A stretch of DNA of 64,000 nt from Cryptococcus deneoformans JEC21 (lineage: Eukaryota > Basidiomycota > Tremellomycetes > Tremellales > Cryptococcaceae). How positions within the stretch are numbered: the first letter of the stretch is position 1; each line of letters begins with the position of its first letter. Shown piece by piece: positions 34,891 through 64,000 of this stretch. The stretch is taken from NCBI RefSeq assembly GCF_000091045.1, contig NC_006679.1, forward strand, positions 796,781 through 860,780, given 5' to 3'. The notes beneath the pieces were generated by a model, which saw nothing but the letters and a program-made list of their open reading frames with translations, made no database searches and was not told where the DNA came from. The translations under genes and the position numbers were made by a program.

Positions 34891-35183
34891 AATCCTTTTG
34901 TTCTTCGGCAGAACGTTATCAGAAATCCTTTTGTTCTCTAGCAGGAGCCAGGTACTAGAATGTGCCGATTTCGGCAGACTGATTCACACTTCTTATTGTT
35001 CTTCGGCAGGAATCAGGTCCCTTTTGTTCTAACTTCTTTTGTTCTCAGTCGTATGCGGACCGATTCACGTTTATAGTATCCTTACGGATAACTCTTCATT
35101 GCTATTTGTAGCCGGAAGCATTCTTCTGCTTGCCCATGGTTCGGGCTTTTATTTCATGTACGGTGTATACGTAATTGGATTAT

Positions 35184-38100
35184 CTACTCCGAGTCGGAGT
35201 TTTCTTCGGCCCTATCGTTTTCTAGGCTCGTTTCTGCTTCACGCATCATGAAGTCAAGCATGCCAGGTCTCTTGTAGAACCTCCGAATCCTGGATCCAGG
35301 TATCTTTTCCTTGAGCAACGCTCCCGTTATCTCTCGTAGGATAAATGCACCTCCTTGGTTGATTCGCACTATACGGTAGGGGCCTCGCCACCTGGGCTCT
35401 TTCCGAACTCCTCGGCCATTGTCCTGCTGAGAGTTTCGGACCATGACTAAGTCACCCGATTTGAAGTCTCGGTTGTGCTGCCTGTCACTGAACCTGTCAT
35501 TGTGATATGCTACACTAGCTTCCCTAGAAGCCTTTACTCGCTCTCTAGCTACAGCCTTGTCGGCTTCCCGATTCTCGATCTGAATCATTCTAGCTTCCAG
35601 AAGTTCGGCAGGCGTCCGAATCTTCTCCCAGTTAGTCATGAGTATGCTTTCTTCTGTGAAGTCGATCGGAAGGACTGCTTCCTGACCAAACATGAGATAA
35701 TGTGGGGTGTACCCAGTAGATGCTCTAACAGTGGTTCGATCGGCCCAGAGGGCATAATGCAGATAGTCCGGCCACCGATTAGTCTGTCCGTTCGGACATC
35801 TCTTGAATATTGCTTCTTTGATGGGCCGATTGCCTCGTTCGATAACTCCATTCGCAGCTGGATTGTAAGAACTAGTAACAATATGCTTCACTTGGAACTT
35901 CTGTAGAAGTTTATGGAAGTCTCCTTTGAACTCTGAACCTCCGTCCGTGGTGACGCAGACCATGGTGCCGTATCTGGAGATGATGTCCTCATAAAAGAAC
36001 TTAGCTACTTCGCTAGCCGTTGTCGAACGCAAGGCTCTGGCTTCCACCCAACCGGTGGTATTCTCTCTCGCAATCACTATGATCTGCGGTTGGTTGGTGT
36101 CTTTGGGATCTTTGCCCATACTAATGCAGTCGATATCCCACTTGTAAAGGATTGTAGGAGGCTCCGGGCTGACCTTCGGTGACTCATAAAAGCGATAATC
36201 TCGCTGTTGACATGGTACGCATGACCGAACATATCCTTCGATGTCTCTGGCCATTCCCGGCCAATAGAATCTGTCTCTTATTCTCGTGTAGGTACCTCGT
36301 TCGCCACGATGACCACCTTCGTCATGTAAGGCTCTCAGTATGTCCATCTGCGCGGTCTTGTTAAGTATGACTCGAGCCGGCATACAATGCCCTCCCCCAG
36401 GCTTTTTGAAGAGGAGTCCTCTCCGCAAGAAGTAGTCTCGCGAGACTCGAGCAAGCTTGCGTTGGTGTTTAGGCTCGATGTCAGCTGGCCATTCAAGCGT
36501 CGCAAGGAACCTGGCGATGAGCCACCAGTCACCACTGTATCGGCGGGCCTCGGGCATCCGGCCGTCCCAGCGGTCATAGGCTCGACGGTCATCGTCTCGA
36601 CTTAGTTCAACTTGTACAGCTGCGTCTGCCTCGGCAGCTTCATCCTCAGAGTCAAGGCCTGGCTCTTCAGCATTGGCAACAGCCTCAGCTTCTCCTTGAA
36701 CATTCGATGCAGCAACATCATAGTCATCATAGCGGTCATCAAGCCAGCGCTCGAGATCCTCATCATCACTGTCGTCGTCCTGCTGCGGACGGCGAGAAAG
36801 CGCATCGGGCACAATATGGGTAGTACCCGGCACGTGTTTGAACTCAAAGTGGTTAGATAAGATGTACATGCACCAGCGACCTTCGGCGGCACTAGGGTAG
36901 CTTGGGGCATTGATCATCTGCTTGACGGAGGAACAGTCCGTTTCCAGTATGAACTTGCAGCCATGGACCCAAGGGCGGGCAACCTTCATCCCGACGAAGA
37001 TGCCGTACAACTCGAGTTTCGGCTGGCTATAGCGTTGCTGCATCTCGTTGTAGTATACAGTCATAAAGCGTGCAGGTTGTCGTCGACTTTCGGCATCCAT
37101 CTGGGCGAGTTCTATACCACACCCCATGTAGCTAGCATCAATAGCCAGAATAGGAGGGTACTTGTCAATCACAGAGTAGTCAATTGGGCGTATGACGCCG
37201 CAGTTACGAAATGCTTCTTTCGCAGCCTCTAGAGCTGCGGCTGCGTCTGCCGTCCAGGCAAACTCAGATCCATCCACTTTGGTGAGATCAACCATCGGGC
37301 GAACAATCTGTCCATAGTTCCGAATCCACATTCGGGCACGGCCGAGAACGCCCAGAACGCTCCGAACATCCTTCTTGTTGTGACAAACGGTCCATTTATC
37401 AATCTTGGCCATGGCCTCCTTGGTGACTCGGCGACCTTCAAAGGAGCACATGTAGCCAACCATTAAAACTTCCGGAACAGCCAACTGGAGCTTCTTAGCA
37501 CTAAAAGTACCGCCATACCGCTTCATCTTATGCAAGATAATGTTCAAGTCGCAAAAGTGCTCGTAGATGAAACGGCGAATGCCCTTGTTTTCGGGGATAG
37601 TCTCTGGTCTTCCTTCCTTATCCAAGTAGAAACTGCTCGGGCCCTTGAGAGTGACATCGTCAATATAGACTTGTACTTTATCGGGCAGTTCATCCGCAAA
37701 GATAAAGGCCATGACCCGATGAAACGCTGCAACTGCGTTGGTCCAGCCTTGTNGCATCTTAGTAAGTCGCAGAGTTCCAAGAGGGCTCTCGAAAGTAGTC
37801 ACATCTCGTGAATCCTTGTGCAATTCCAGTTGATCATAACCAGCAAAGGCATCTAGCTGAGTATACACAGAGCGACCGACAAGGCTTTCAGTGAGGTCGT
37901 CCATGTTTGGCGGCATACCAGCATCACGGACAGTGTTCATGTTGAGATTCTGCAAATCATGGACAACCCGAACATTGCCGTCCTTCTTCTCGACTGGGAA
38001 GAATGCAGATCTATAAGAAGATTGGCTTCGTTCATACAAGCCAGACTTAAGTTTCTCTTTCATGAAGGCAATAACCTTTTCTCTGGTTTTAGCTGGAATA

Positions 38101-41100
38101 CGGATCACCTTATCCTGCCATGGGACATGGGGAATCAAAGGGATACGATGCGGGGGAATGTACTTGGTACTGAAGCATCCCTTCTCAGCCTCAGTCCAAG
38201 CGAGGGCATTTTCCTGCTGGAGGAGTACTGACGCAATGAGATCCTTTTCGACAGGGAGTAGAAATCCTTCCGGAGATTGATTAAAAATGCCAATCATACG
38301 TTCCTTAGTGAGTCTGTCGCCAAACCTGAGGTCTTCCCAAGACATGGGTTGTGTGGTTACTACTGGAAGATCGGCCATCAGGTCACCAGGAGTGACCATC
38401 GGGTCTTTCTCCACTTCCGGATAGATGGTCTCCACCGGTCGCTTCTTCTTAGCCACAGGTTTGTAAGCTCCGCAAGAAAGATAAGTCCCAGCGGCAGAGC
38501 CGGTAGTCCCTTGGAATAATTCCATTCGCTCGTAGCCTTCTTTGAGATGGTCCACCATGTACATATCATTCAAGGATAAGGTAAGAAACCCTTCTCCATC
38601 AATCGATCCAGTTTTGAACATGTAGTCTCCGATGGCCTCAGCGACCCAGTTGGCTTCTTCGTCGAGTTCGGCTGGCCTAAGGCTGTCCACGACATATTTC
38701 ATATCACCTGGTTCAGTTCTCTCTTGGCTAAAGCTGACCATTCCAACGAAGACGTCATGCACCTCTACCAGAGCTCCAATAAGATTTACATCTTTTTCAA
38801 CGACTTTGAGCCTATTGGCTACATCGTACTGGGTTTTCTTCGGACCTTGCGGCAGGTGCATATATTGGTGACTTTGCCCGACTGGGGTATTCTGCCGTAC
38901 TACTCGGCGCTCTCCGGCCCAGTAGATGTCAATCTTGTTCTTGTAGACGAAGGGCATGCCCAAGATAACCTTTTTGATGGTGGATCCGACCCAGAAGGTA
39001 TGAGTAGTGGTGATCCCACCTAGGGTGACAGGCAGAACAACACTTCCCAAGAGAGCCTCCGGGGCACCTAAGATTCCATTTACTCGAAAGACAGTGTCAG
39101 TACGTAACCCACGGGGTTCCTTGGCATTGACCAAATCCCAGAGCTTCTCAGGAATGATGTTGAGCTCAGACCCATCGTCAATCATGGCTACAGCAGGGAC
39201 TCCTCCAATAATAGATTTCATTTTGCAAGTGCCTACAGCAAGGTACTCAGCATCGGCTTCGATAAGCGTCCCCCATGCGGTAGTCAGGGGTGGCTTCTTG
39301 GCTAAATCGACAGGCTTGTTCGAACCATCAGAGGCTGCAGGTTCAGTAACCAACTTGGTGTGTTCGGGTACTACCTCCTGCTTCTCACTCTGCGTCTCGG
39401 CTTCGTGAGCTTCAAACAAAGAGATAGATTCTTGGTAGTCTCGGTCGGACCAGGTCACATGAGAAACACTAACAGCGGCTGACTTGTAAACAAGTTCGTC
39501 CTCAATGGAACTCTCTTCATCAGATGCTTCGGAAGCAGCACCTTCGTTTATCTCCGCGGACAGAGTTCGCTTGATGGACTCCATCTGATGGGGCTTATTT
39601 GCTACATACGCTGCCTTCGCAAAGAGAGGGCTGATTGCACAGAGCTCCGCAAAGGTAAGCTTGAACTCAGTACGTTTCATGAGGAGGTCCTTGACGATAG
39701 CTCCAGCATCGAGCTCTTGGCTGATGTAGGTATATTTACTCCCGCCTTTAGCAGTCGTGATGTCATCCAGTGCGGACGAGGCTTTTGATTTGGGTGCGGT
39801 CACAGTCGGCGCAACATGAGACTTTATACTAGACACTGCAGTTTTTGCCAGCTTGGCCTTGTGATCCTTCTCTTGGAAGGTGACCTTTTTCGAAAGCTCT
39901 TTCTTAACAGCAGGCTTAGTAATGGGCTCTGCCATATCAATGTCCTCGCTCAACCTCTTCGGAGGAGCAAGAGCCACAGGCGCAGGAAGAGGTCTCCCAG
40001 AACCGAACGGGATATTGGTAGGTCCCCAAGGTTTCTTTTCTCGGATCTCGGCCACTTTCTGCTTGCGAGCATCGATCTCTTGTCTCTTTTCCCAAGGAGT
40101 TCGCTGACCAAGTGGAGTCTTAGCCGGCGTAGGAGAACTGGACCTATAAGGCTTAGTACGAGTGTCCTCGTGCTTAGAACGAACAGCTGCGTGGACAGAG
40201 TAAGAGTCTTCTGCCTCATCTTGTGCTTTGGCCGCCTGTAGCTGACCGATGAGCATGCTTATAGTAGCCTGGTCCTCAGGTCGGTCACCTCGATAGTTGT
40301 TCCCATAGTCAACCCCCGGCTGGAGATTGTAGAAACGGGCTTCGGAGGTGAATACATCGCAGGCAGTAAAGGGAGGTAGCTCTTCAGCAGCGGTACGTCC
40401 CCAGAGGGTGTCTTGGCAAACCTCGCCGTCGTCATCGACTACATCCTGAGATTCAAGGTCTAAGCTGATGATGGCAAAAGAAGAATACGCAGACTGCTGC
40501 GCCTCTTCCATCCCGGGTGGGTACATTGAGTCATCGAAGTCAGTGGACTCGTAGCCCATTACAGCGGCCGCTTCAGCTGTCTGGATACGCTCTTTCGCAG
40601 CTTCAACCATCTCTCGGACAGTGCTCTCGTAGGTTCCATCAGTGTGTCGCTTGATAGGCAAGCCATTTGCCTTCCAGACCCACAAGTTGTTGATCTTGGC
40701 TAGAATATTATCAGGGACCCACTTCTCGGGTACAGTGCATTGAGCAACACGATGGGCAGGCGACCCGCACCAGTGACACTTGGCAGGACCTCTGTTGACC
40801 GTTTCTCGGGTATAGGAGCTATTGATAGGCCTAGCAGGCTCGGCTGTCTCACGAGAGGTACGGCTGGGATAGTGCGGAGGAACTTCTCTCTTGTAAGTAC
40901 TAGTTCCTTCCCTGGGCGGCTCGAGCAGGCCTTCGGCAGTAACGGCACTAATGCTATGGATTCGCTCATAGAGCTCTTTGTAGGTAGGGTTCTCTCGATA
41001 ACCTCCCCTATCGGCGTCTTTCATCTGCCAAGCTTCATCCAACAGAGTGTCTATGGCAGGCGTAGTAGCAGTATAGGCTGCGAGGGTCTTTGGCATCTGG

Positions 41101-42245
41101 GCCGCATGACGAGGACGCAGAACATAAAGTCGAGCATAACAAGCTGAGTAAGTAGCAGCCTGACGAGCAGTGATGCCCGCCGCACTAGCGCTCTGGATCT
41201 TGAGGTCACTCATGCGTTTGATTAGATCATCAACTTCGTCAACAGGGTTCCCTGGAGCGGACAGGCCAACAGTAGGTTTGGTAGGATTCATCTCCTCTTC
41301 GTCAATAGTGGTCTTCAGCTGAACTATCTCGGTCCTGCCTTTCTGTACCTTAGAGAGGTAACGGGTCTTGTTCTCTTCCGCTAGCTGAGCGAGTTCCTGA
41401 TGAGTACGTAACTCAGGATGCATCTCCTCGATACGTTCATTCTCCAAGACATCTCGGGGGTCAAGAATCCCTTCGATCCACTTAGTGACTTTCTTCCGGT
41501 CAGGGTATTTGGTCTTATCTTGAGTCTCCTTTCGCCAGACTTCTTCGACATAACGATCTTTCCAAGCTCGAGGGAGACCCTCGTACCAGTACTGATTGAT
41601 GTAATCATTGATACCCATGTTAGCTTGGAACTTCAGTGCATCTCGAGCGTAAGCTTCGATTCGTGCAGTCAAATCCTCTATGCGGTTGAGAGGTTTCTTC
41701 TGATATGTAAGTGCATACTTCTGCAAGGCCTCGAGAGTACCTTCAACATCCTTGGATCGGTCCCTATACAAGGTAGTAAGACGAGCCTTGACTGCAGTCC
41801 AGGTTGTCTCCTCAATAAGCATGGCTTTGAGTCGTTCTACGTGTCCTGCATCAACGTAGTCGAACCACTTCGCCTTCCAGTCGGTCTTGGGTAAACCCTT
41901 CTCTTCGGCGGTAGCCTCGAACCAAGTTATGCAGTGATCAAGAGTCTCGGCAGTACCAGACCAGACTTGGGAGCCTCTGTCACTAGCCAATGGCATCTTC
42001 TTGGGCTTGGTGAATGCCCCAAGAACATCAGTAACTTCAGCGTCGGAGCTGTCAGTCTTCTTGGTGAGTAGCTTCAATAACTCCTGGTTGGTTAAACCTT
42101 GCGCCACTAGAGCTTCCATGAGAGGCTTGGCCCACTCTGGAGTATTGTATGCATTTGCATTGCCAGATTTGGCTGACCCATCAGGGTTTTGGTTCGAGGA
42201 TTCCCCAACAGGAGTTTCACTCGTCTTGTCGTTGTCGTTTGTCAT
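35184..42245 (-). CDS. E gag-pol polyprotein (2353 aa), left copy
   Basis: A single open frame begins at ATG 42245, 412 bp after the 5' LTR. In order: a helical gag; CCHC knuckle CHWCGSPAHRVAQC (490-503); a long acidic linker; protease with unusual IDDGSE (D1023-D1024); RT with YIDD (1527-1530) and MRQGWTNA; RNase H AIDAS (D1703); integrase HHCC (from H1974, CVPCQQ) and catalytic D2039, D2101, E2136 (34 residues between the last two, one fewer than usual); and GPY/F segment WRGPYRIV (about 2290). There is no chromodomain; the end is acidic (RAEENSDSE). One ambiguous base (n at 37753) hides a codon in RT. Much larger than the A-C polyproteins, so a different lineage. Apparently intact. Confidence 0.9.
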   Translation of the reverse strand: MTNDNDKTSETPVGESSNQNPDGSAKSGNANAYNTPEWAKPLMEALVAQGLTNQELLKLLTKKTDSSDAEVTDVLGAFTKPKKMPLASDRGSQVWSGTAETLDHCITWFEATAEEKGLPKTDWKAKWFDYVDAGHVERLKAMLIEETTWTAVKARLTTLYRDRSKDVEGTLEALQKYALTYQKKPLNRIEDLTARIEAYARDALKFQANMGINDYINQYWYEGLPRAWKDRYVEEVWRKETQDKTKYPDRKKVTKWIEGILDPRDVLENERIEEMHPELRTHQELAQLAEENKTRYLSKVQKGRTEIVQLKTTIDEEEMNPTKPTVGLSAPGNPVDEVDDLIKRMSDLKIQSASAAGITARQAATYSACYARLYVLRPRHAAQMPKTLAAYTATTPAIDTLLDEAWQMKDADRGGYRENPTYKELYERIHSISAVTAEGLLEPPREGTSTYKREVPPHYPSRTSRETAEPARPINSSYTRETVNRGPAKCHWCGSPAHRVAQCTVPEKWVPDNILAKINNLWVWKANGLPIKRHTDGTYESTVREMVEAAKERIQTAEAAAVMGYESTDFDDSMYPPGMEEAQQSAYSSFAIISLDLESQDVVDDDGEVCQDTLWGRTAAEELPPFTACDVFTSEARFYNLQPGVDYGNNYRGDRPEDQATISMLIGQLQAAKAQDEAEDSYSVHAAVRSKHEDTRTKPYRSSSPTPAKTPLGQRTPWEKRQEIDARKQKVAEIREKKPWGPTNIPFGSGRPLPAPVALAPPKRLSEDIDMAEPITKPAVKKELSKKVTFQEKDHKAKLAKTAVSSIKSHVAPTVTAPKSKASSALDDITTAKGGSKYTYISQELDAGAIVKDLLMKRTEFKLTFAELCAISPLFAKAAYVANKPHQMESIKRTLSAEINEGAASEASDEESSIEDELVYKSAAVSVSHVTWSDRDYQESISLFEAHEAETQSEKQEVVPEHTKLVTEPAASDGSNKPVDLAKKPPLTTAWGTLIEADAEYLAVGTCKMKSIIGGVPAVAMIDDGSELNIIPEKLWDLVNAKEPRGLRTDTVFRVNGILGAPEALLGSVVLPVTLGGITTTHTFWVGSTIKKVILGMPFVYKNKIDIYWAGERRVVRQNTPVGQSHQYMHLPQGPKKTQYDVANRLKVVEKDVNLIGALVEVHDVFVGMVSFSQERTEPGDMKYVVDSLRPAELDEEANWVAEAIGDYMFKTGSIDGEGFLTLSLNDMYMVDHLKEGYERMELFQGTTGSAAGTYLSCGAYKPVAKKKRPVETIYPEVEKDPMVTPGDLMADLPVVTTQPMSWEDLRFGDRLTKERMIGIFNQSPEGFLLPVEKDLIASVLLQQENALAWTEAEKGCFSTKYIPPHRIPLIPHVPWQDKVIRIPAKTREKVIAFMKEKLKSGLYERSQSSYRSAFFPVEKKDGNVRVVHDLQNLNMNTVRDAGMPPNMDDLTESLVGRSVYTQLDAFAGYDQLELHKDSRDVTTFESPLGTLRLTKMXQGWTNAVAAFHRVMAFIFADELPDKVQVYIDDVTLKGPSSFYLDKEGRPETIPENKGIRRFIYEHFCDLNIILHKMKRYGGTFSAKKLQLAVPEVLMVGYMCSFEGRRVTKEAMAKIDKWTVCHNKKDVRSVLGVLGRARMWIRNYGQIVRPMVDLTKVDGSEFAWTADAAAALEAAKEAFRNCGVIRPIDYSVIDKYPPILAIDASYMGCGIELAQMDAESRRQPARFMTVYYNEMQQRYSQPKLELYGIFVGMKVARPWVHGCKFILETDCSSVKQMINAPSYPSAAEGRWCMYILSNHFEFKHVPGTTHIVPDALSRRPQQDDDSDDEDLERWLDDRYDDYDVAASNVQGEAEAVANAEEPGLDSEDEAAEADAAVQVELSRDDDRRAYDRWDGRMPEARRYSGDWWLIARFLATLEWPADIEPKHQRKLARVSRDYFLRRGLLFKKPGGGHCMPARVILNKTAQMDILRALHDEGGHRGERGTYTRIRDRFYWPGMARDIEGYVRSCVPCQQRDYRFYESPKVSPEPPTILYKWDIDCISMGKDPKDTNQPQIIVIARENTTGWVEARALRSTTASEVAKFFYEDIISRYGTMVCVTTDGGSEFKGDFHKLLQKFQVKHIVTSSYNPAANGVIERGNRPIKEAIFKRCPNGQTNRWPDYLHYALWADRTTVRASTGYTPHYLMFGQEAVLPIDFTEESILMTNWEKIRTPAELLEARMIQIENREADKAVARERVKASREASVAYHNDRFSDRQHNRDFKSGDLVMVRNSQQDNGRGVRKEPRWRGPYRIVRINQGGAFILREITGALLKEKIPGSRIRRFYKRPGMLDFMMREAETSLENDRAEENSDSE

Positions 42246-42574
42246 GTGTGTGTGTATAAGCTAGAGTTTCGATGGTACGGCAAAGGATGAAAGGTGGAAA
42301 GTGGGTTGCAGCTTCTCTCCTTTTTCCTACATCCACATAAGGAAATGGTCTTTCAAACAGTTTTCGAGTTTATCAGGGACCTTCGGCAGGCGCTCCCACA
42401 ATTGCTATTGTTCTCCGGCCCGAACCCTGGACTCTTTCCTGAATTAGGTACAAATCTAGCAAATTCCGATTAGGACCGAAACATGGCACACATGAATCGT
42501 ACAACAAGCAAATAGCTCCACTCTGGACGAAGAAAGAACCAGGAGGGGGCGAACAACACCATGGCATATGGTAT

Positions 42575-42655
42575 GCCTTGACCTGTGAAGGTCGTTGAGA
42601 GACTCAAAGGTCTCATAATCCTCAGCTCTGAGTTCGATTCTCAGTGAGGGCACCA
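42575..42655 (+). ncRNA. tRNA-Met(CAT)-like sequence covering the E primer-binding site (left)
   Basis: On the plus strand, antisense to E, 81 nt end in ...GTGAGGGCACCA two bases before the LTR. The T arm is canonical (CTGAG-TTCGATT-CTCAG), the anticodon loop reads CTCATAA (anticodon CAT), and the proposed acceptor pairs GCCTTGA with TGAGGGC at 6 of 7 positions. The D arm is not convincing and the 5' half is about 5 nt too long, so it is not a functional tRNA gene. The E RNA would pair with the whole 3' half of tRNA-Met rather than the usual 18 nt. I infer capture of primer sequence during reverse transcription. Confidence 0.6.
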
Positions 42656-42657
42656 CA

Positions 42658-43185
42658 TGTAGCGTAAAACCCCTAAAGTCTCCTACGGATATGCTTCCAT
42701 TAGGTTCCGTCGGCCTCCACCCATGTTATCCAAGGCTGATGACGGACTGTACGACTGTAAAGGCTGCTAGGGAATATAGCCTCCCAAAGGTTTGGCTGTG
42801 GTGGTCATAGTACATACGATGGAAGTACCCTATGTATCTGGTGATAGATTGGTATAGTGGTATAGTGGTAACGATTAGTTAAGCTCGGGTCTCATGTCGA
42901 GCTGGCTGGTGTTGCTGATACAGTCCTGCTGTACTTGCGCTATAAAGCGTCTGCCTATAAGGCTGCATATACGAAGATAGATTATATCTAAGGAGAACAT
43001 CATAGATAGCTAGCCTAGAATGGACTAAGTACCCAGAGTGAACTAAGTAAAAGAAAGTAAAAGTAATAAGGTATCCCACTTCAGCAACGGCTCTACTCCG
43101 CTCTTGATCCCTGCGGTAACCTCCGTCATGTTGATAAGTGGGTGCTCGAAGTGATGTGACATGGCCGTAGGCCCATTGCACTACA
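42658..43185 (-). repeat. E 5' LTR (528 bp), left copy
   Basis: Same ends and length as the 3' LTR. By eye they differ at three bases (for example CCATGTTATCC here, CCATGATATCC in the other). Confidence 0.93.
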
Positions 43186-43256
43186 ACGCGGCTTGAAATT
43201 CGAAGCTGGGGAAGGTGGTGACCGTGGGTCACTGGGTCGGAGGCTAGCCTCTTACA
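43186..43256 (-). repeat. C LTR remainder beyond E
   Basis: 71 bp, ACGCGGCTTGAAATTC to GCTAGCCTCTTACA. This is the 5' end of the C 3' LTR interrupted by E. It is followed by the C purine tract (minus strand GGAGGGGGAGGG). Confidence 0.9.
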
Positions 43257-44164
43257 CCCTCCCCCTCCTGGATGAGACGGAGTATGTGAGGGAGAAGAAG
43301 GAAATGAGACACACACACACTAGAAAACTGTAGAAGCTGGGCTTCAATGAGGGGCCAGGCTGAGAGACAATCCATGAAACATGTTGACTGAGGGAAACCC
43401 CCACCACGAAAAAACTCCCTGGCCTTTTGGCTTCTTTTCAGATTCTTTGTCTGGGGATAAAAAAAATGGGGGGTGGGGGAACCTCTTGTCTGTCTTCAGG
43501 CCNGTGAGGAAGGGGGGGAGGAAACTGAAGGAGAAATAAATGGACGAGAAAAAAATGAGAAAACACGGCACGAAGGAAAAAAAGGGGGGAACGGAATTGA
43601 AAACCTGGACAGGGGTGGGCTGGGGACTTGAGGGGGGGGGGTGGTTTGGCATCTGTGCGAAGGTGTCAGCCTGGTCTGAGGGGTAGATGAGGAAAAAAAA
43701 GGGTGTTAGGGAGGGTGTATACAGCTCACGACGGAGTGTGGCCATGTCGGGACCGTTAACCCTGGGTGAACATCTGAGGAACATCAGTAGTAACGTCCAG
43801 TACGTCGAGATGTAGCTCATCTTCGCCAATAAAGTCTTCCCAAGCCTCCTGCCAACCTGCATAGTCCTGCGCTGTATCGCGACTGAGCCACCGAGCCTTG
43901 GGGCCTTCACCGGCGAGGCGGGNGCGCACTTGGTAAACCTTTGGATGATTTCCCTTGGGGGTGAGGGTGCGGTCTTCAAGGATTTGGAGGATGCGTGGCG
44001 AGGAAACTGCCGGGCGGTCGAGTAGGCGAGGAACCGCGTGCTGGTGATACTGTTCGGACTCCCGGTATGGCTTGAGGCGCGAAACATGGCGGCGAGGCGT
44101 CGACTGTGTTGAGGTGACGGGGACATCCAATTCATAGAGTGATTGCTCGGGAAAGGCCTTGAGG
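43257..44164 (-). pseudogene. C element 3' part: pol tail and noncoding, left arm
   Basis: Minus strand. The pol tail is coded at 44159-43756: KAFPEQSLYELDVP, then RHVSRLKPY, a chromodomain-like segment LQILEDR through GEGPKARW, and the conserved end FIGEDELHL before a short extra tail. About 500 bp of noncoding sequence with homopolymer runs follow. It continues the pol frame that stops at 49727 (CCATCCTCA joined to AAGGCC), so it belongs to the same C element. Two n bases (43503 and 43923). Confidence 0.85.
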
Positions 44165-45109: not shown

Positions 45110-45172
45110 CTTTTTTTTCAAACTCATTACCCAAATCAATTCACACCACACTCCACCACACCAACATACATC

Positions 45173-50669: not shown

Positions 50670-50737
50670 GCAATGGTACGAATAATCTCCGGTGCTAATG
50701 TGGGAGCGAAGGTGACCACGGGGGCGAGAATACAATG
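50670..50737 (-). mobile_element. Short D-element fragment at the palindrome junction
   Basis: On the minus strand it encodes about 20 residues (APTLAPEIIRTIA) and ends ATTGC against the C LTR. B has TLDPDTLRAIAQGY here, and D resumes at 31806 with ATTGC-CCAGGG (QGYDREN). It is therefore the upstream flank of the C insertion in D. Its other edge, about 50720-50737, joins C-family RNase H sequence. Confidence 0.75.
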
Positions 50738-53683: not shown

Positions 53684-53746
53684 GATGTATGTTGGTGTGG
53701 TGGAGTGTGGTGTGAATTGATTTGGGTAATGAGTTTGAAAAAAAAG

Positions 53747-54691: not shown

Positions 54692-54696
54692 CCTCA

Positions 54697-55100
54697 AGGC
54701 CTTTCCCGAGCAATCACTCTATGAATTGGATGTCCCCGTCACCTCAACACAGTCGACGCCTCGCCGCCATGTTTCGCGCCTCAAGCCATACCGGGAGTCC
54801 GAACAGTATCACCAGCACGCGGTTCCTCGCCTACTCGACCGCCCGGCAGTTTCCTCGCCACGCATCCTCCAAATCCTTGAAGACCGCACCCTCACCCCCA
54901 AGGGAAATCATCCAAAGGTTTACCAAGTGCGCACCCGCCTCGCCGGTGAAGGCCCCAAGGCTCGGTGGCTCAGTCGCGATACAGCGCAGGACTATGCAGG
55001 TTGGCAGGAGGCTTGGGAAGACTTTATTGGCGAAGATGAGCTACATCTCGACGTACTGGACGTTACTACTGATGTTCCTCAGATGTTCACCCAGGGTTAA
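54697..55100 (+). pseudogene. C pol tail, right arm
   Basis: Plus-strand mirror of 43756-44159: KAFPEQSLYELDVP, a chromodomain-like segment and FIGEDELHL, stop at 55100. The bases n in the left arm are resolved here. Confidence 0.85.
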
Positions 55101-55599
55101 CGGTCCCGACATGGCCACACTCCGTCGTGAGCTGTATACACCCTCCCTAACACCCTTTTTTTTCCTCATCTACCCCTCAGACCAGGCTGACACCTTCGCA
55201 CAGATGCCAAACCACCCCCCCCCCTCAAGTCCCCAGCCCACCCCTGTCCAGGTTTTCAATTCCGTTCCCCCCTTTTTTTCCTTCGTGCCGTGTTTTCTCA
55301 TTTTTTTCTCGTCCATTTATTTCTCCTTCAGTTTCCTCCCCCCCTTCCTCACAGGCCTGAAGACAGACAAGAGGTTCCCCCACCCCCCATTTTTTTTATC
55401 CCCAGACAAAGAATCTGAAAAGAAGCCAAAAGGCCAGGGAGTTTTTTCGTGGTGGGGGTTTCCCTCAGTCAACATGTTTCATGGATTGTCTCTCAGCCTG
55501 GCCCCTCATTGAAGCCCAGCTTCTACAGTTTTCTAGTGTGTGTGTGTCTCATTTCCTTCTTCTCCCTCACATACTCCGTCTCATCCAGGAGGGGGAGGG
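55101..55599 (+). other. C element 3' noncoding region, right arm
   Basis: About 500 bp with C and T homopolymers and a GT repeat near 55535-55546, ending in the purine tract AGGAGGGGGAGGG. Open frames here are low complexity and not called. Confidence 0.6.
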
Positions 55600-55670
55600 T
55601 GTAAGAGGCTAGCCTCCGACCCAGTGACCCACGGTCACCACCTTCCCCAGCTTCGAATTTCAAGCCGCGT
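55600..55670 (+). repeat. C LTR fragment before right E copy
   Basis: 71 bp, TGTAAGAGGCTAGCC to AAGCCGCGT, the mirror of 43186-43256, cut by element E. Confidence 0.88.
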
Positions 55671-56292
55671 TGTAGTGCAATGGGCCTACGGCCATGTCAC
55701 ATNNNNNNNNNNNNNNNNNNNNNNNNNNNNNNNNNNNNNNNNNNNNNNNNNNNNNNNNNNGCGTTGTAGTGCAATGGGCCTACGGCCATGTCACATCACT
55801 TCGAGCACCCACTTATCAACATGACGGAGGTTACCGCAGGGATCAAGAGCGGAGTAGAGCCGTTGCTGAAGTGGGATACCTTATTACTTTTACTTTCTTT
55901 TACTTAGTTCACTCTGGGTACTTAGTCCATTCTAGGCTAGCTATCTATGATGTTCTCCTTAGATATAATCTATCTTCGTATATGCAGCCTTATAGGCAGA
56001 CGCTTTATAGCGCAAGTACAGCAGGACTGTATCAGCAACACCAGCCAGCTCGACATGAGACCCGAGCTTAACTAATCGTTACCACTATACCACTATACCA
56101 ATCTATCACCAGATACATAGGGTACTTCCATCGTATGTACTATGACCACCACAGCCAAACCTTTGGGAGGCTATATTCCCTAGCAGCCTTTACAGTCGTA
56201 CAGTCCGTCATCAGCCTTGGATAACATGGGTGGAGGCCGACGGAACCTAATGGAAGCATATCCGTAGGAGACTTTAGGGGTTTTACGCTACA
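55671..56292 (+). repeat. E 5' LTR, right copy, containing a false gap
   Basis: TGTAGTGCAATGGGCC to GCTACA. It includes the N run and a repeated 36-mer; without them it is 528 bp, the same as the left copy. Confidence 0.9.
55703..55760. other. Assembly gap (58 N), probably spurious
   Basis: The 36 bases at 55667-55702 recur exactly at 55761-55796, and the mirror arm has them once without a gap. The two contig ends overlap and should have been merged. Confidence 0.95.
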
Positions 56293-56294
56293 TG

Positions 56295-56375
56295 TGGTGC
56301 CCTCACTGAGAATCGAACTCAGAGCTGAGGATTATGAGACCTTTGAGTCTCTCAACGACCTTCACAGGTCAAGGC
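56295..56375 (-). ncRNA. tRNA-Met(CAT)-like sequence covering the E primer-binding site (right)
   Basis: Mirror of 42575-42655. In element sense it begins TGGTGCCCTCACTGAG two bases after the LTR, the expected position of a primer-binding site for a tRNA ending ...GGGCACCA. Same canonical T arm and CAT loop, same imperfect D arm. Confidence 0.6.
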
Positions 56376-56704
56376 ATACCATATGCCATGGTGTTGTTCG
56401 CCCCCTCCTGGTTCTTTCTTCGTCCAGAGTGGAGCTATTTGCTTGTTGTACGATTCATGTGTGCCATGTTTCGGTCCTAATCGGAATTTGCTAGATTTGT
56501 ACCTAATTCAGGAAAGAGTCCAGGGTTCGGGCCGGAGAACAATAGCAATTGTGGGAGCGCCTGCCGAAGGTCCCTGATAAACTCGAAAACTGTTTGAAAG
56601 ACCATTTCCTTATGTGGATGTAGGAAAAAGGAGAGAAGCTGCAACCCACTTTCCACCTTTCATCCTTTGCCGTACCATCGAAACTCTAGCTTATACACAC
56701 ACAC

Positions 56705-59700
56705 ATGACAAACGACAACGACAAGACGAGTGAAACTCCTGTTGGGGAATCCTCGAACCAAAACCCTGATGGGTCAGCCAAATCTGGCAATGCAAATGCA
56801 TACAATACTCCAGAGTGGGCCAAGCCTCTCATGGAAGCTCTAGTGGCGCAAGGTTTAACCAACCAGGAGTTATTGAAGCTACTCACCAAGAAGACTGACA
56901 GCTCCGACGCTGAAGTTACTGATGTTCTTGGGGCATTCACCAAGCCCAAGAAGATGCCATTGGCTAGTGACAGAGGCTCCCAAGTCTGGTCTGGTACTGC
57001 CGAGACTCTTGATCACTGCATAACTTGGTTCGAGGCTACCGCCGAAGAGAAGGGTTTACCCAAGACCGACTGGAAGGCGAAGTGGTTCGACTACGTTGAT
57101 GCAGGACACGTAGAACGACTCAAAGCCATGCTTATTGAGGAGACAACCTGGACTGCAGTCAAGGCTCGTCTTACTACCTTGTATAGGGACCGATCCAAGG
57201 ATGTTGAAGGTACTCTCGAGGCCTTGCAGAAGTATGCACTTACATATCAGAAGAAACCTCTCAACCGCATAGAGGATTTGACTGCACGAATCGAAGCTTA
57301 CGCTCGAGATGCACTGAAGTTCCAAGCTAACATGGGTATCAATGATTACATCAATCAGTACTGGTACGAGGGTCTCCCTCGAGCTTGGAAAGATCGTTAT
57401 GTCGAAGAAGTCTGGCGAAAGGAGACTCAAGATAAGACCAAATACCCTGACCGGAAGAAAGTCACTAAGTGGATCGAAGGGATTCTTGACCCCCGAGATG
57501 TCTTGGAGAATGAACGTATCGAGGAGATGCATCCTGAGTTACGTACTCATCAGGAACTCGCTCAGCTAGCGGAAGAGAACAAGACCCGTTACCTCTCTAA
57601 GGTACAGAAAGGCAGGACCGAGATAGTTCAGCTGAAGACCACTATTGACGAAGAGGAGATGAATCCTACCAAACCTACTGTTGGCCTGTCCGCTCCAGGG
57701 AACCCTGTTGACGAAGTTGATGATCTAATCAAACGCATGAGTGACCTCAAGATCCAGAGCGCTAGTGCGGCGGGCATCACTGCTCGTCAGGCTGCTACTT
57801 ACTCAGCTTGTTATGCTCGACTTTATGTTCTGCGTCCTCGTCATGCGGCCCAGATGCCAAAGACCCTCGCAGCCTATACTGCTACTACGCCTGCCATAGA
57901 CACTCTGTTGGATGAAGCTTGGCAGATGAAAGACGCCGATAGGGGAGGTTATCGAGAGAACCCTACCTACAAAGAGCTCTATGAGCGAATCCATAGCATT
58001 AGTGCCGTTACTGCCGAAGGCCTGCTCGAGCCGCCCAGGGAAGGAACTAGTACTTACAAGAGAGAAGTTCCTCCGCACTATCCCAGCCGTACCTCTCGTG
58101 AGACAGCCGAGCCTGCTAGGCCTATCAATAGCTCCTATACCCGAGAAACGGTCAACAGAGGTCCTGCCAAGTGTCACTGGTGCGGGTCGCCTGCCCATCG
58201 TGTTGCTCAATGCACTGTACCCGAGAAGTGGGTCCCTGATAATATTCTAGCCAAGATCAACAACTTGTGGGTCTGGAAGGCAAATGGCTTGCCTATCAAG
58301 CGACACACTGATGGAACCTACGAGAGCACTGTCCGAGAGATGGTTGAAGCTGCGAAAGAGCGTATCCAGACAGCTGAAGCGGCCGCTGTAATGGGCTACG
58401 AGTCCACTGACTTCGATGACTCAATGTACCCACCCGGGATGGAAGAGGCGCAGCAGTCTGCGTATTCTTCTTTTGCCATCATCAGCTTAGACCTTGAATC
58501 TCAGGATGTAGTCGATGACGACGGCGAGGTTTGCCAAGACACCCTCTGGGGACGTACCGCTGCTGAAGAGCTACCTCCCTTTACTGCCTGCGATGTATTC
58601 ACCTCCGAAGCCCGTTTCTACAATCTCCAGCCGGGGGTTGACTATGGGAACAACTATCGAGGTGACCGACCTGAGGACCAGGCTACTATAAGCATGCTCA
58701 TCGGTCAGCTACAGGCGGCCAAAGCACAAGATGAGGCAGAAGACTCTTACTCTGTCCACGCAGCTGTTCGTTCTAAGCACGAGGACACTCGTACTAAGCC
58801 TTATAGGTCCAGTTCTCCTACGCCGGCTAAGACTCCACTTGGTCAGCGAACTCCTTGGGAAAAGAGACAAGAGATCGATGCTCGCAAGCAGAAAGTGGCC
58901 GAGATCCGAGAAAAGAAACCTTGGGGACCTACCAATATCCCGTTCGGTTCTGGGAGACCTCTTCCTGCGCCTGTGGCTCTTGCTCCTCCGAAGAGGTTGA
59001 GCGAGGACATTGATATGGCAGAGCCCATTACTAAGCCTGCTGTTAAGAAAGAGCTTTCGAAAAAGGTCACCTTCCAAGAGAAGGATCACAAGGCCAAGCT
59101 GGCAAAAACTGCAGTGTCTAGTATAAAGTCTCATGTTGCGCCGACTGTGACCGCACCCAAATCAAAAGCCTCGTCCGCACTGGATGACATCACGACTGCT
59201 AAAGGCGGGAGTAAATATACCTACATCAGCCAAGAGCTCGATGCTGGAGCTATCGTCAAGGACCTCCTCATGAAACGTACTGAGTTCAAGCTTACCTTTG
59301 CGGAGCTCTGTGCAATCAGCCCTCTCTTTGCGAAGGCAGCGTATGTAGCAAATAAGCCCCATCAGATGGAGTCCATCAAGCGAACTCTGTCCGCGGAGAT
59401 AAACGAAGGTGCTGCTTCCGAAGCATCTGATGAAGAGAGTTCCATTGAGGACGAACTTGTTTACAAGTCAGCCGCTGTTAGTGTTTCTCATGTGACCTGG
59501 TCCGACCGAGACTACCAAGAATCTATCTCTTTGTTTGAAGCTCACGAAGCCGAGACGCAGAGTGAGAAGCAGGAGGTAGTACCCGAACACACCAAGTTGG
59601 TTACTGAACCTGCAGCCTCTGATGGTTCGAACAAGCCTGTCGATTTAGCCAAGAAGCCACCCCTGACTACCGCATGGGGGACGCTTATCGAAGCCGATGC

Positions 59701-62700
59701 TGAGTACCTTGCTGTAGGCACTTGCAAAATGAAATCTATTATTGGAGGAGTCCCTGCTGTAGCCATGATTGACGATGGGTCTGAGCTCAACATCATTCCT
59801 GAGAAGCTCTGGGATTTGGTCAATGCCAAGGAACCCCGTGGGTTACGTACTGACACTGTCTTTCGAGTAAATGGAATCTTAGGTGCCCCGGAGGCTCTCT
59901 TGGGAAGTGTTGTTCTGCCTGTCACCCTAGGTGGGATCACCACTACTCATACCTTCTGGGTCGGATCCACCATCAAAAAGGTTATCTTGGGCATGCCCTT
60001 CGTCTACAAGAACAAGATTGACATCTACTGGGCCGGAGAGCGCCGAGTAGTACGGCAGAATACCCCAGTCGGGCAAAGTCACCAATATATGCACCTGCCG
60101 CAAGGTCCGAAGAAAACCCAGTACGATGTAGCCAATAGGCTCAAAGTCGTTGAAAAAGATGTAAATCTTATTGGAGCTCTGGTAGAGGTGCATGACGTCT
60201 TCGTTGGAATGGTCAGCTTTAGCCAAGAGAGAACTGAACCAGGTGATATGAAATATGTCGTGGACAGCCTTAGGCCAGCCGAACTCGACGAAGAAGCCAA
60301 CTGGGTCGCTGAGGCCATCGGAGACTACATGTTCAAAACTGGATCGATTGATGGAGAAGGGTTTCTTACCTTATCCTTGAATGATATGTACATGGTGGAC
60401 CATCTCAAAGAAGGCTACGAGCGAATGGAATTATTCCAAGGGACTACCGGCTCTGCCGCTGGGACTTATCTTTCTTGCGGAGCTTACAAACCTGTGGCTA
60501 AGAAGAAGCGACCGGTGGAGACCATCTATCCGGAAGTGGAGAAAGACCCGATGGTCACTCCTGGTGACCTGATGGCCGATCTTCCAGTAGTAACCACACA
60601 ACCCATGTCTTGGGAAGACCTCAGGTTTGGCGACAGACTCACTAAGGAACGTATGATTGGCATTTTTAATCAATCTCCGGAAGGATTTCTACTCCCTGTC
60701 GAAAAGGATCTCATTGCGTCAGTACTCCTCCAGCAGGAAAATGCCCTCGCTTGGACTGAGGCTGAGAAGGGATGCTTCAGTACCAAGTACATTCCCCCGC
60801 ATCGTATCCCTTTGATTCCCCATGTCCCATGGCAGGATAAGGTGATCCGTATTCCAGCTAAAACCAGAGAAAAGGTTATTGCCTTCATGAAAGAGAAACT
60901 TAAGTCTGGCTTGTATGAACGAAGCCAATCTTCTTATAGATCTGCATTCTTCCCAGTCGAGAAGAAGGACGGCAATGTTCGGGTTGTCCATGATTTGCAG
61001 AATCTCAACATGAACACTGTCCGTGATGCTGGTATGCCGCCAAACATGGACGACCTCACTGAAAGCCTTGTCGGTCGCTCTGTGTATACTCAGCTAGATG
61101 CCTTTGCTGGTTATGATCAACTGGAATTGCACAAGGATTCACGAGATGTGACTACTTTCGAGAGCCCTCTTGGAACTCTGCGACTTACTAAGATGCGACA
61201 AGGCTGGACCAACGCAGTTGCAGCGTTTCATCGGGTCATGGCCTTTATCTTTGCGGATGAACTGCCCGATAAAGTACAAGTCTATATTGACGATGTCACT
61301 CTCAAGGGCCCGAGCAGTTTCTACTTGGATAAGGAAGGAAGACCAGAGACTATCCCCGAAAACAAGGGCATTCGCCGTTTCATCTACGAGCACTTTTGCG
61401 ACTTGAACATTATCTTGCATAAGATGAAGCGGTATGGCGGTACTTTTAGTGCTAAGAAGCTCCAGTTGGCTGTTCCGGAAGTTTTAATGGTTGGCTACAT
61501 GTGCTCCTTTGAAGGTCGCCGAGTCACCAAGGAGGCCATGGCCAAGATTGATAAATGGACCGTTTGTCACAACAAGAAGGATGTTCGGAGCGTTCTGGGC
61601 GTTCTCGGCCGTGCCCGAATGTGGATTCGGAACTATGGACAGATTGTTCGCCCGATGGTTGATCTCACCAAAGTGGATGGATCTGAGTTTGCCTGGACGG
61701 CAGACGCAGCCGCAGCTCTAGAGGCTGCGAAAGAAGCATTTCGTAACTGCGGCGTCATACGCCCAATTGACTACTCTGTGATTGACAAGTACCCTCCTAT
61801 TCTGGCTATTGATGCTAGCTACATGGGGTGTGGTATAGAACTCGCCCAGATGGATGCCGAAAGTCGACGACAACCTGCACGCTTTATGACTGTATACTAC
61901 AACGAGATGCAGCAACGCTATAGCCAGCCGAAACTCGAGTTGTACGGCATCTTCGTCGGGATGAAGGTTGCCCGCCCTTGGGTCCATGGCTGCAAGTTCA
62001 TACTGGAAACGGACTGTTCCTCCGTCAAGCAGATGATCAATGCCCCAAGCTACCCTAGTGCCGCCGAAGGTCGCTGGTGCATGTACATCTTATCTAACCA
62101 CTTTGAGTTCAAACACGTGCCGGGTACTACCCATATTGTGCCCGATGCGCTTTCTCGCCGTCCGCAGCAGGACGACGACAGTGATGATGAGGATCTCGAG
62201 CGCTGGCTTGATGACCGCTATGATGACTATGATGTTGCTGCATCGAATGTTCAAGGAGAAGCTGAGGCTGTTGCCAATGCTGAAGAGCCAGGCCTTGACT
62301 CTGAGGATGAAGCTGCCGAGGCAGACGCAGCTGTACAAGTTGAACTAAGTCGAGACGATGACCGTCGAGCCTATGACCGCTGGGACGGCCNGATGCCCGA
62401 GGCCCGCCGATACAGTGGTGACTGGTGGCTCATCGCCAGGTTCCTTGCGACGCTTGAATGGCCAGCTGACATCGAGCCTAAACACCAACGCAAGCTTGCT
62501 CGAGTCTCGCGAGACTACTTCTTGCGGAGAGGACTCCTCTTCAAAAAGCCTGGGGGAGGGCATTGTATGCCGGCTCGAGTCATACTTAACAAGACCGCGC
62601 AGATGGACATACTGAGAGCCTTACATGACGAAGGTGGTCATCGTGGCGAACGAGGTACCTACACGAGAATAAGAGACAGATTCTATTGGCCGGGAATGGC

Positions 62701-63766
62701 CAGAGACATCGAAGGATATGTTCGGTCATGCGTACCATGTCAACAGCGAGATTATCGCTTTTATGAGTCACCGAAGGTCAGCCCGGAGCCTCCTACAATC
62801 CTTTACAAGTGGGATATCGACTGCATTAGTATGGGCAAAGATCCCAAAGACACCAACCAACCGCAGATCATAGTGATTGCGAGAGAGAATACCACCGGTT
62901 GGGTGGAAGCCAGAGCCTTGCGTTCGACAACGGCTAGCGAAGTAGCTAAGTTCTTTTATGAGGACATCATCTCCAGATACGGCACCATGGTCTGCGTCAC
63001 CACGGACGGAGGTTCAGAGTTCAAAGGAGACTTCCATAAACTTCTACAGAAGTTCCAAGTGAAGCATATTGTTACTAGTTCTTACAATCCAGCTGCGAAT
63101 GGAGTTATCGAACGAGGCAATCGGCCCATCAAAGAAGCAATATTCAAGAGATGTCCGAACGGACAGACTAATCGGTGGCCGGACTATCTGCATTATGCCC
63201 TCTGGGCCGATCGAACCACTGTTAGAGCATCTACTGGGTACACCCCACATTATCTCATGTTTGGTCAGGAAGCAGTCCTTCCGATCGACTTCACAGAAGA
63301 AAGCATACTCATGACTAACTGGGAGAAGATTCGGACGCCTGCCGAACTTCTGGAAGCTAGAATGATTCAGATCGAGAATCGGGAAGCCGACAAGGCTGTA
63401 GCTAGAGAGCGAGTAAAGGCTTCTAGGGAAGCTAGTGTAGCATATCACAATGACAGGTTCAGTGACAGGCAGCACAACCGAGACTTCAAATCGGGTGACT
63501 TAGTCATGGTCCGAAACTCTCAGCAGGACAATGGCCGAGGAGTTCGGAAAGAGCCCAGGTGGCGAGGCCCCTACCGTATAGTGCGAATCAACCAAGGAGG
63601 TGCATTTATCCTACGAGAGATAACGGGAGCGTTGCTCAAGGAAAAGATACCTGGATCCAGGATTCGGAGGTTCTACAAGAGACCTGGCATGCTTGACTTC
63701 ATGATGCGTGAAGCAGAAACGAGCCTAGAAAACGATAGGGCCGAAGAAAACTCCGACTCGGAGTAG
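56705..63766 (+). CDS. E gag-pol polyprotein (2353 aa), right copy
   Basis: ATG 56705 (MTNDNDKTSE). Same length and domains as the left copy: CCHC knuckle at 58172, protease IDDGSE at 59768, RT YIDD at 61283, RNase H AIDAS at 61808, integrase HHCC from 62624 and catalytic codons at 62819, 63005 and 63110, GPY near 63570. The RT codon hidden in the left copy is Arg here. One n (62391) hides a codon between RNase H and integrase. Frame intact, stop at 63764-63766. Confidence 0.9.
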   Translation: MTNDNDKTSETPVGESSNQNPDGSAKSGNANAYNTPEWAKPLMEALVAQGLTNQELLKLLTKKTDSSDAEVTDVLGAFTKPKKMPLASDRGSQVWSGTAETLDHCITWFEATAEEKGLPKTDWKAKWFDYVDAGHVERLKAMLIEETTWTAVKARLTTLYRDRSKDVEGTLEALQKYALTYQKKPLNRIEDLTARIEAYARDALKFQANMGINDYINQYWYEGLPRAWKDRYVEEVWRKETQDKTKYPDRKKVTKWIEGILDPRDVLENERIEEMHPELRTHQELAQLAEENKTRYLSKVQKGRTEIVQLKTTIDEEEMNPTKPTVGLSAPGNPVDEVDDLIKRMSDLKIQSASAAGITARQAATYSACYARLYVLRPRHAAQMPKTLAAYTATTPAIDTLLDEAWQMKDADRGGYRENPTYKELYERIHSISAVTAEGLLEPPREGTSTYKREVPPHYPSRTSRETAEPARPINSSYTRETVNRGPAKCHWCGSPAHRVAQCTVPEKWVPDNILAKINNLWVWKANGLPIKRHTDGTYESTVREMVEAAKERIQTAEAAAVMGYESTDFDDSMYPPGMEEAQQSAYSSFAIISLDLESQDVVDDDGEVCQDTLWGRTAAEELPPFTACDVFTSEARFYNLQPGVDYGNNYRGDRPEDQATISMLIGQLQAAKAQDEAEDSYSVHAAVRSKHEDTRTKPYRSSSPTPAKTPLGQRTPWEKRQEIDARKQKVAEIREKKPWGPTNIPFGSGRPLPAPVALAPPKRLSEDIDMAEPITKPAVKKELSKKVTFQEKDHKAKLAKTAVSSIKSHVAPTVTAPKSKASSALDDITTAKGGSKYTYISQELDAGAIVKDLLMKRTEFKLTFAELCAISPLFAKAAYVANKPHQMESIKRTLSAEINEGAASEASDEESSIEDELVYKSAAVSVSHVTWSDRDYQESISLFEAHEAETQSEKQEVVPEHTKLVTEPAASDGSNKPVDLAKKPPLTTAWGTLIEADAEYLAVGTCKMKSIIGGVPAVAMIDDGSELNIIPEKLWDLVNAKEPRGLRTDTVFRVNGILGAPEALLGSVVLPVTLGGITTTHTFWVGSTIKKVILGMPFVYKNKIDIYWAGERRVVRQNTPVGQSHQYMHLPQGPKKTQYDVANRLKVVEKDVNLIGALVEVHDVFVGMVSFSQERTEPGDMKYVVDSLRPAELDEEANWVAEAIGDYMFKTGSIDGEGFLTLSLNDMYMVDHLKEGYERMELFQGTTGSAAGTYLSCGAYKPVAKKKRPVETIYPEVEKDPMVTPGDLMADLPVVTTQPMSWEDLRFGDRLTKERMIGIFNQSPEGFLLPVEKDLIASVLLQQENALAWTEAEKGCFSTKYIPPHRIPLIPHVPWQDKVIRIPAKTREKVIAFMKEKLKSGLYERSQSSYRSAFFPVEKKDGNVRVVHDLQNLNMNTVRDAGMPPNMDDLTESLVGRSVYTQLDAFAGYDQLELHKDSRDVTTFESPLGTLRLTKMRQGWTNAVAAFHRVMAFIFADELPDKVQVYIDDVTLKGPSSFYLDKEGRPETIPENKGIRRFIYEHFCDLNIILHKMKRYGGTFSAKKLQLAVPEVLMVGYMCSFEGRRVTKEAMAKIDKWTVCHNKKDVRSVLGVLGRARMWIRNYGQIVRPMVDLTKVDGSEFAWTADAAAALEAAKEAFRNCGVIRPIDYSVIDKYPPILAIDASYMGCGIELAQMDAESRRQPARFMTVYYNEMQQRYSQPKLELYGIFVGMKVARPWVHGCKFILETDCSSVKQMINAPSYPSAAEGRWCMYILSNHFEFKHVPGTTHIVPDALSRRPQQDDDSDDEDLERWLDDRYDDYDVAASNVQGEAEAVANAEEPGLDSEDEAAEADAAVQVELSRDDDRRAYDRWDGXMPEARRYSGDWWLIARFLATLEWPADIEPKHQRKLARVSRDYFLRRGLLFKKPGGGHCMPARVILNKTAQMDILRALHDEGGHRGERGTYTRIRDRFYWPGMARDIEGYVRSCVPCQQRDYRFYESPKVSPEPPTILYKWDIDCISMGKDPKDTNQPQIIVIARENTTGWVEARALRSTTASEVAKFFYEDIISRYGTMVCVTTDGGSEFKGDFHKLLQKFQVKHIVTSSYNPAANGVIERGNRPIKEAIFKRCPNGQTNRWPDYLHYALWADRTTVRASTGYTPHYLMFGQEAVLPIDFTEESILMTNWEKIRTPAELLEARMIQIENREADKAVARERVKASREASVAYHNDRFSDRQHNRDFKSGDLVMVRNSQQDNGRGVRKEPRWRGPYRIVRINQGGAFILREITGALLKEKIPGSRIRRFYKRPGMLDFMMREAETSLENDRAEENSDSE

Positions 63767-64000
63767 ATAATCCAATTACGTATACACCGTACATGAAATA
63801 AAAGCCCGAACCATGGGCAAGCAGAAGAATGCTTCCGGCTACAAATAGCAATGAAGAGTTATCCGTAAGGATACTATAAACGTGAATCGGTCCGCATACG
63901 ACTGAGAACAAAAGAAGTTAGAACAAAAGGGACCTGATTCCTGCCGAAGAACAATAAGAAGTGTGAATCAGTCTGCCGAAATCGGCACATTCTAGTACCT

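What the first reader, a model, noticed from the sequence alone, without database searches (positions are those of the whole stretch)
34950..64000. At least 13.2-kb near-perfect inverted duplication with a 2.6-kb spacer
34950-48119 and 50737-64000 are reverse complements, including the nested E and C elements, their TSD-like junctions and their reading frames. The duplication therefore happened after all these insertions, and the right arm has not ended at 64000. Two oppositely oriented C-family segments lie at the centre, which suits fold-back or template switching at inverted repeats. A collapsed or folded assembly of one 13-kb locus would look the same.
Basis: partly seen in the sequence, partly recalled or inferred. 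Interest (0 to 1): 0.75.

Follow-up and report, generated by a model that had tools for sequence, protein, structure and literature searches.

The report
Fold-back duplication inside a fungal centromere
A 16-thousand-letter block of nested jumping genes in a yeast-like fungus's centromere appears twice in mirror image, most likely because a broken chromosome end folded back and copied itself; the event is of a known kind, and long-read data are needed to be sure the old assembly is right.

Summary
The inverted repeat is in the sequence and larger than reported: left arm 31807-48121, right arm 50735 to window-equivalent 66910 (L009:2910), about 16 kb each around a 2.6-kb spacer. Over 33570-47316 (13.7 kb) no called base differs; five single Ns lie there. 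The window is inferred to be a centromere of Cryptococcus deneoformans (probably JEC21). The left arm looks original: an LTR element (C) with a 5-bp target duplication at both ends sits in a D element whose empty site is intact in 7 of 7 other copies fetched. Past it the sequence runs 67 bp into D, then jumps, with 2 bp in common, into an inverted copy of C that starts 2.6 kb back. The copy ends at the outer edge of C's LTR, joined to a different D site. This fits fold-back duplication finished by LTR-LTR recombination. All 9 single Ns in the fetched DNA lie in this repeat or a second one on contig 3, and all 9 are at CpG/TpG/CpA-type sites, as expected if reads from two real, slightly diverged, methylated copies were mixed. 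That favours two physical copies, but the perfect identity and the central join need long reads. New member of a known kind.

The parts
29901..31806 (+). D element, left flank of the duplication
   Evidence: 98.7% to D copy L048; other copies 98-99%; frame 30321-30998 has a Tf2-1-like SH3 domain
31802..31806 (.). GCAAT, left target duplication of the left C element
   Evidence: partner at 50670-50674; single in 7 of 7 fetched D copies that carry the site
31807..48121 (.). Left arm of the inverted duplication (16,315 bp)
31807..32684 (-). 3' LTR of the left C element, outer piece (rest at 43186-43258), split by E
32685..43185 (-). E element, left copy: LTRs 32685-33212 and 42658-43185, 2,353-aa frame 35184-42245 on the minus strand; target duplication ACGC
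43259..44164 (-). 3' internal part of the left C element, ends in TGAGG
44165..45109 (+). C-family LTR at one end of an internal inversion
45110..49727 (+). C internal region in inverted orientation, ends in CCTCA; frame 45053-49732 with protease, RT, RNase H and integrase domains
47317..47755 (+). Patch where the arms differ at 15 sites; left like C copies on contigs 13, 3 and 6, right like copies on contigs 5 and 14
48122..50734 (.). Spacer, present once between the arms (C internal end, C LTR, D remnant)
49728..50669 (-). C-family LTR, 5' LTR of the left C element
50670..50736 (+). D remnant of 67 bp, begins with the second GCAAT
   Evidence: 100% to L048:2399-2465
50735..50738 (.). Central join D to inverted C; AT shared; base 50738 matches neither side
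50735..64000 (.). Right arm inside the window; continues to L009:2910 (window-equivalent 66910)
50739..53746 (-). C internal 5' part, right arm
53747..54691 (-). C-family LTR, right arm
54692..55671 (+). 3' internal part of C and first 74 bp of its 3' LTR, right arm
55703..55760 (.). 58-N assembly gap; the same 36 bp on both sides
55765..64000 (+). E element, right copy (to window-equivalent 66265), frame 56705-63766

Best explanation
A real inverted segmental duplication in a Cryptococcus centromere, made by fold-back repair. A break fell in the D element just right of the left C element (inferred). The end, now 67 bp into D, paired with 2 bp of inverted homology 2.6 kb back inside C and was extended, copying about 16 kb of C, E and C LTR in reverse (join, spacer and extent shown; pairing and synthesis inferred). 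Synthesis reached the outer C LTR, where homology to another C LTR in an inverted D copy let the chromosome be rejoined (change of flank at the LTR edge shown, recombination inferred). Afterwards the copies diverged largely by CpG transitions, as expected in methylated DNA, and a patch was exchanged with another C copy. The assembly partly blended the arms and left ambiguous bases.
For: Left C is one insertion with GCAAT on both sides and an empty site in 7 of 7 fetched D copies, so left is the template. Single-copy 2.6-kb spacer and 2-bp shared join fall within the published range for fold-back duplications: spacers 766-70,466 bp, median 3,428; 2-8 bp at 13 junctions (passages of PMC3907307). 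The copy ends at the C LTR edge and continues in D at another site and orientation; yeast foldback inversions are mostly closed by homology-mediated secondary rearrangements (passages of PMC7467729). Two physical copies: 9 of 9 single Ns at CpG-type sites of the two repeats and 4 of 4 differences in 32646-33569 are CpG transitions.
Against: No reads. 2 bp of shared sequence arises in 14.9% of random joins simulated in this window, and one base at the join fits neither side. The right arm contains an assembly gap. E has no full copy outside the repeat, so nothing independent shows two E copies. Three of three E differences lie in its outermost 885 bp and none is called in the rest, which a single recent copying event does not explain without blending or conversion. 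The inner patch of differences lies next to the join.
Confidence: 0.5

Rival explanations
1. Homologous recombination started it: a broken C LTR in the right-hand D invaded the left C LTR, copied about 16 kb inwards and the new end was joined to the D break by end joining. Same product, opposite order.
For: One end of the tract is inside a C LTR, a repeat with dozens of genome copies, and the other is a short-homology join.
Against: No feature here separates it from fold-back; the spacer size and short join match described fold-back cases.
Confidence: 0.2
2. Assembly artefact: one physical C/E locus placed twice, with a chimeric join at 50735 and a false link at the gap.
For: 58-N gap with overlapping contig ends inside the arm; no called difference over 13.7 kb while differences sit near the ends; E full-length nowhere else; [quoted passage not shown]
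Against: Outer flanks differ (D at two sites and orientations); the two E-to-flank segments differ by CpG transitions; single Ns differ between arms and are all at CpG-type sites, which one locus in a haploid would not give.
Confidence: 0.2
3. An older inverted repeat whose arms are kept alike by arm-to-arm gene conversion, the ends having escaped.
For: Differences at the edges, none called in the middle; best-matching C copies change along the arm; the contig-3 repeat is similar and more diverged.
Against: Both states of 12 of the 15 patch differences occur in other C copies, so that patch reflects exchange with them, not age; if the Ns are true differences the middle is not that clean.
Confidence: 0.1

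Closest known systems
Fold-back inverted duplications of human chromosomes (PMC3907307) and foldback inversions of Saccharomyces cerevisiae (PMC7467729); passages seen
   Same: Single-copy spacer of a few kb, 2-bp join, far end rejoined at repeated DNA
   Different: Here about 16 kb, inside a centromere, natural strain, chromosome otherwise ordinary in the assembly; mechanism not tested
Homogenised inverted repeats of Candida tropicalis centromeres (PMC4741521); passages seen
   Same: Inverted repeat around a core at a centromere
   Different: Not shared by all centromeres, core is not unique DNA, arms are nested retrotransposons with one E-specific part found only here
Second inverted repeat on contig 3 of the same genome
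   Same: Compound inverted repeat of centromeric elements, single Ns at CpG-type sites in one arm
   Different: More diverged, much longer unread interior, other elements
Ty3-group Tcn LTR retrotransposons of Cryptococcus (PMC7175516; passages seen)
   Same: The building blocks: Ty3-type elements in one stretch per chromosome
   Different: The duplication itself is not a transposition product; which Tcn number C, D and E carry was not determined

Membership tests
Fold-back inverted duplication | Two inverted copies separated by a single-copy spacer | tested here: met
   arms 31807-48121 and 50735-66910, spacer 48122-50734; within the assembly only
Fold-back inverted duplication | Short inverted homology at the spacer-to-inversion join | tested here: inconclusive
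   2 bp (AT) shared; 14.9% of random joins in this window do as well
Fold-back inverted duplication | Far end closed by a secondary, often homology-mediated, rearrangement | tested here: met
   copy ends at the outer C LTR edge with a different D flank; that homology did it is inferred
Fold-back inverted duplication | Both copies physically present in the cell | not testable with these tools
   no reads; indirect support from CpG-type Ns
Homogenised inverted-repeat centromere (Candida tropicalis type) | Inverted repeats shared across the species' centromeres | tested here: not met
   no second full-length match to the 9.4-kb E interior outside the two arms; arm structure found only here
Homogenised inverted-repeat centromere (Candida tropicalis type) | Non-repetitive mid core | tested here: not met
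   the spacer matches 56 places in the genome
Homogenised inverted-repeat centromere (Candida tropicalis type) | CENP-A bound to the core | not testable with these tools
   no ChIP data
Ty3-type LTR retrotransposon (elements C and E) | Paired LTRs, short target duplication, RT, RNase H and integrase domains | tested here: met
Ty3-type LTR retrotransposon (elements C and E) | Identity with a named Tcn family | not tested
   no named Tcn sequence was at hand

The most novel reading that the evidence does not exclude
Cryptococcus centromeres repeatedly form large fold-back inverted duplications from their retrotransposons (contigs 10 and 3 so far), and exchange between the arms offsets methylation-driven CpG decay, so these repeats preserve elements such as E that have no other full copy.
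Probability: 0.2. Interest if true: 0.6.

Novelty: new member of a known kind. Interest (0 to 1): 0.38.

Why it matters
If two copies are real, a natural fold-back duplication is caught inside a centromere with its template, join and resolution site all readable, which links breakage and repair to how retrotransposon-rich centromeres grow. It also suggests a simple warning sign for old assemblies: ambiguous bases confined to CpG-type sites of long repeats mark blended, methylated copies.

Tried and rejected
Considered and set aside: (1) a central join at inverted C repeats: the join is D to C with 2 bp in common. (2) Inversion of one D element carrying two C insertions: the right D piece is 97% to each of 9 other places while the left D is 98-99% to its 9, so they look like different copies. 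(3) Sequencing error as source of the outer differences: 4 of 4 between 32646 and 33569 are CpG transitions. Against this, only 1 of the 4 outermost differences (31836-32045) is of that type, 6 of the 15 patch differences, and 0 of the last 2. (4) Rfam search of the window at gathering thresholds: nothing. (5) A flanking frame searched to name the strain gave four unnamed relatives, so the strain name is inference.

The CpG test was made after seeing the first Ns, so its chance values are descriptive. Eight C10 loci that overlap the window were left out of the base count, as was the left neighbour piece L013.

Full report
WHERE IT IS. The window is contig C10:796781-860780 of a genome of 19,051,922 bases in 14 contigs. 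A review table gives C. neoformans 19.1 Mb and 14 chromosomes, and its text says over 95% of Tcn1-6 copies are centromeric (passages of PMC7175516). A 4.9-kb query from the left arm matches all 14 contigs, the places listed lying in one stretch of at most about 81 kb on each (40 of 112 candidates scored), as expected of centromeric elements. The closest relative of the C protein region is named C. deneoformans B-3501A, 84% identity.

THE REPEAT. Self-comparison confirms the reported blocks. With neighbouring DNA the arms extend to 31807-48121 on the left and 50735-66910 (window-equivalent; L009:2910) on the right. The left arm is 16,315 bp; the right is 16,082 bp after taking out the 58-N gap and the 36-bp overlap beside it; the difference is a 233-bp length change in the outer C LTR, between two tandem repeats of about 95 bp. 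Called substitutions: 8 in 31807-33569, 0 in 33570-47316, 17 in 47317-48118; five single Ns, all in the middle zone.

ANATOMY. Three retrotransposon families take part. C has an LTR of about 945 bp, and its 3' internal part (43259-44164) directly follows the part ending at 49727 in 7 of 7 other copies examined. E has 528-bp LTRs and one 2,353-aa frame with RT, RNase H and integrase domains; its 9.4-kb interior has two full copies in the genome, both in these arms, and otherwise matches of 36-290 bp. D flanks both sides. On the left, C (31807-50669) has GCAAT on both sides, and the sequences left of 31806 and right of 50670 are contiguous, sharing exactly those five bases, in 7 of 7 fetched D copies that carry the site; two further D matches on contig 5 were not fetched. 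So the left C is one insertion and its surroundings are original. Inside it, TGAGG before the LTR at 44165 and CCTCA before the LTR at 49728 are one target duplication now facing both ways; in the 7 other copies the site is single. I infer that an LTR inserted in C and then recombined with C's 5' LTR, inverting 44165-50669. E entered C's 3' LTR with target duplication ACGC, seen in both arms.

THE JOINS. To the right of C the sequence runs 67 bp into D, target duplication included (100%), and at 50735-50736 switches to inverted C, sharing AT; base 50738 fits neither side; 14.9% of simulated random joins share 2 bp or more. The right arm then repeats the left arm backwards from 48121 to the outer LTR edge. 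Beyond 66910 it does not mirror the left: there is D again, inverted, but cut at another D position (3482 against 2403 in copy L048). A folded single locus would mirror its flank.

WHAT THE DIFFERENCES SAY. The four differences between 32646 and 33569 are all CpG against TpG or CpA, the left arm having T or A. At the two that lie in the E LTR the other three E LTRs agree with the right arm, so the left changed; the other two are not polarised. All nine single Ns in the fetched DNA (five in these arms, four in one arm of the contig-3 repeat) face C or T before G, or G after C, in the other arm; 23.9% of sites in the middle zone qualify, so 9 of 9 has a chance of about 2.5e-6, descriptively. They lie in 51,155 bases taken as the two repeats, none in 220,018 other fetched bases (these are mostly other centromeric copies and chromosome 10 flanks, not a random sample). 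C. neoformans has Dnmt5-dependent 5mC at centromeres (passages of PMC6896017, and PMC8407549). I read the Ns as C/T conflicts between reads of two slightly diverged methylated copies; that N stands for such a conflict is inference. It supports two physical copies and also means that the perfect identity is partly made by the assembly. The inner patch is different: at 12 of its 15 sites both states occur in other C copies, the left arm like copies on contigs 13, 3 and 6, the right like copies on contigs 5 and 14; just outside it both arms are closest to a contig-5 copy. So the left arm probably received a patch from another centromere, or a stray read was assembled there.

MECHANISM. Shown: original left unit, single-copy spacer, short-homology central join, far end at an LTR edge with a new flank. 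Inferred: break, fold-back or invasion, synthesis, LTR-LTR rejoining. [quoted passage not shown] The opposite order, LTR-first copying ended by end joining, gives the same product.

NOT A ONE-OFF. Contig 3 holds a second compound inverted repeat, C3:816668-826000 against 844600-853931: 6.6 kb at 99.7% and 1.8 kb at 98.8%, with outer pieces mirrored out to about 813.1 and 862.7 kb at a shift of about 5.2 kb. Of its 30 called substitutions the script flags 17 as CpG-type, two of them beside another difference.

WHAT IS KNOWN. A later long-read JEC21 assembly exists; [quoted passage not shown] The listings of searches (some capped: 20 of 24, 10 of 138) showed no paper describing this repeat; most subscription papers and all supplements were out of reach. 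Candida tropicalis-type centromeres have inverted repeats shared across chromosomes around a unique core (passages of PMC4741521); this repeat fails both points and is not of that type.

VERDICT. Best read as a young fold-back duplication of nested retrotransposons in a centromere; a new member of a known kind; long reads must settle the artefact question.

Noticed in passing
L064 and L065 (C3:816668-826000 and 844600-853931): A second large inverted repeat at the contig-3 centromere, older by its differences, with four single Ns in one arm, all at CpG-type sites.
   Followed up: partly
C3 about 865200-869284 and 877269-881353: Several C-family pieces on contig 3 recur at the same offset of 12,069 bp, which points to a 12-kb direct duplication, real or assembled.
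   Followed up: no
35184-42245 and 56705-63766: The 2,353-aa E protein region has a 100% match in a cluster of 50 member sequences from public assemblies (P0001), so E exists in other data sets; E also has an LTR-sized match at C3:745624-746165.
   Followed up: no
55667-55796: The same 36 bp stand on both sides of the 58-N gap, so the gap is probably an unmerged contig overlap.
   Followed up: yes
45110-48110: The best-matching C copy changes from window to window along the arm, so C copies in different centromeres look like mosaics that have exchanged sequence.
   Followed up: partly
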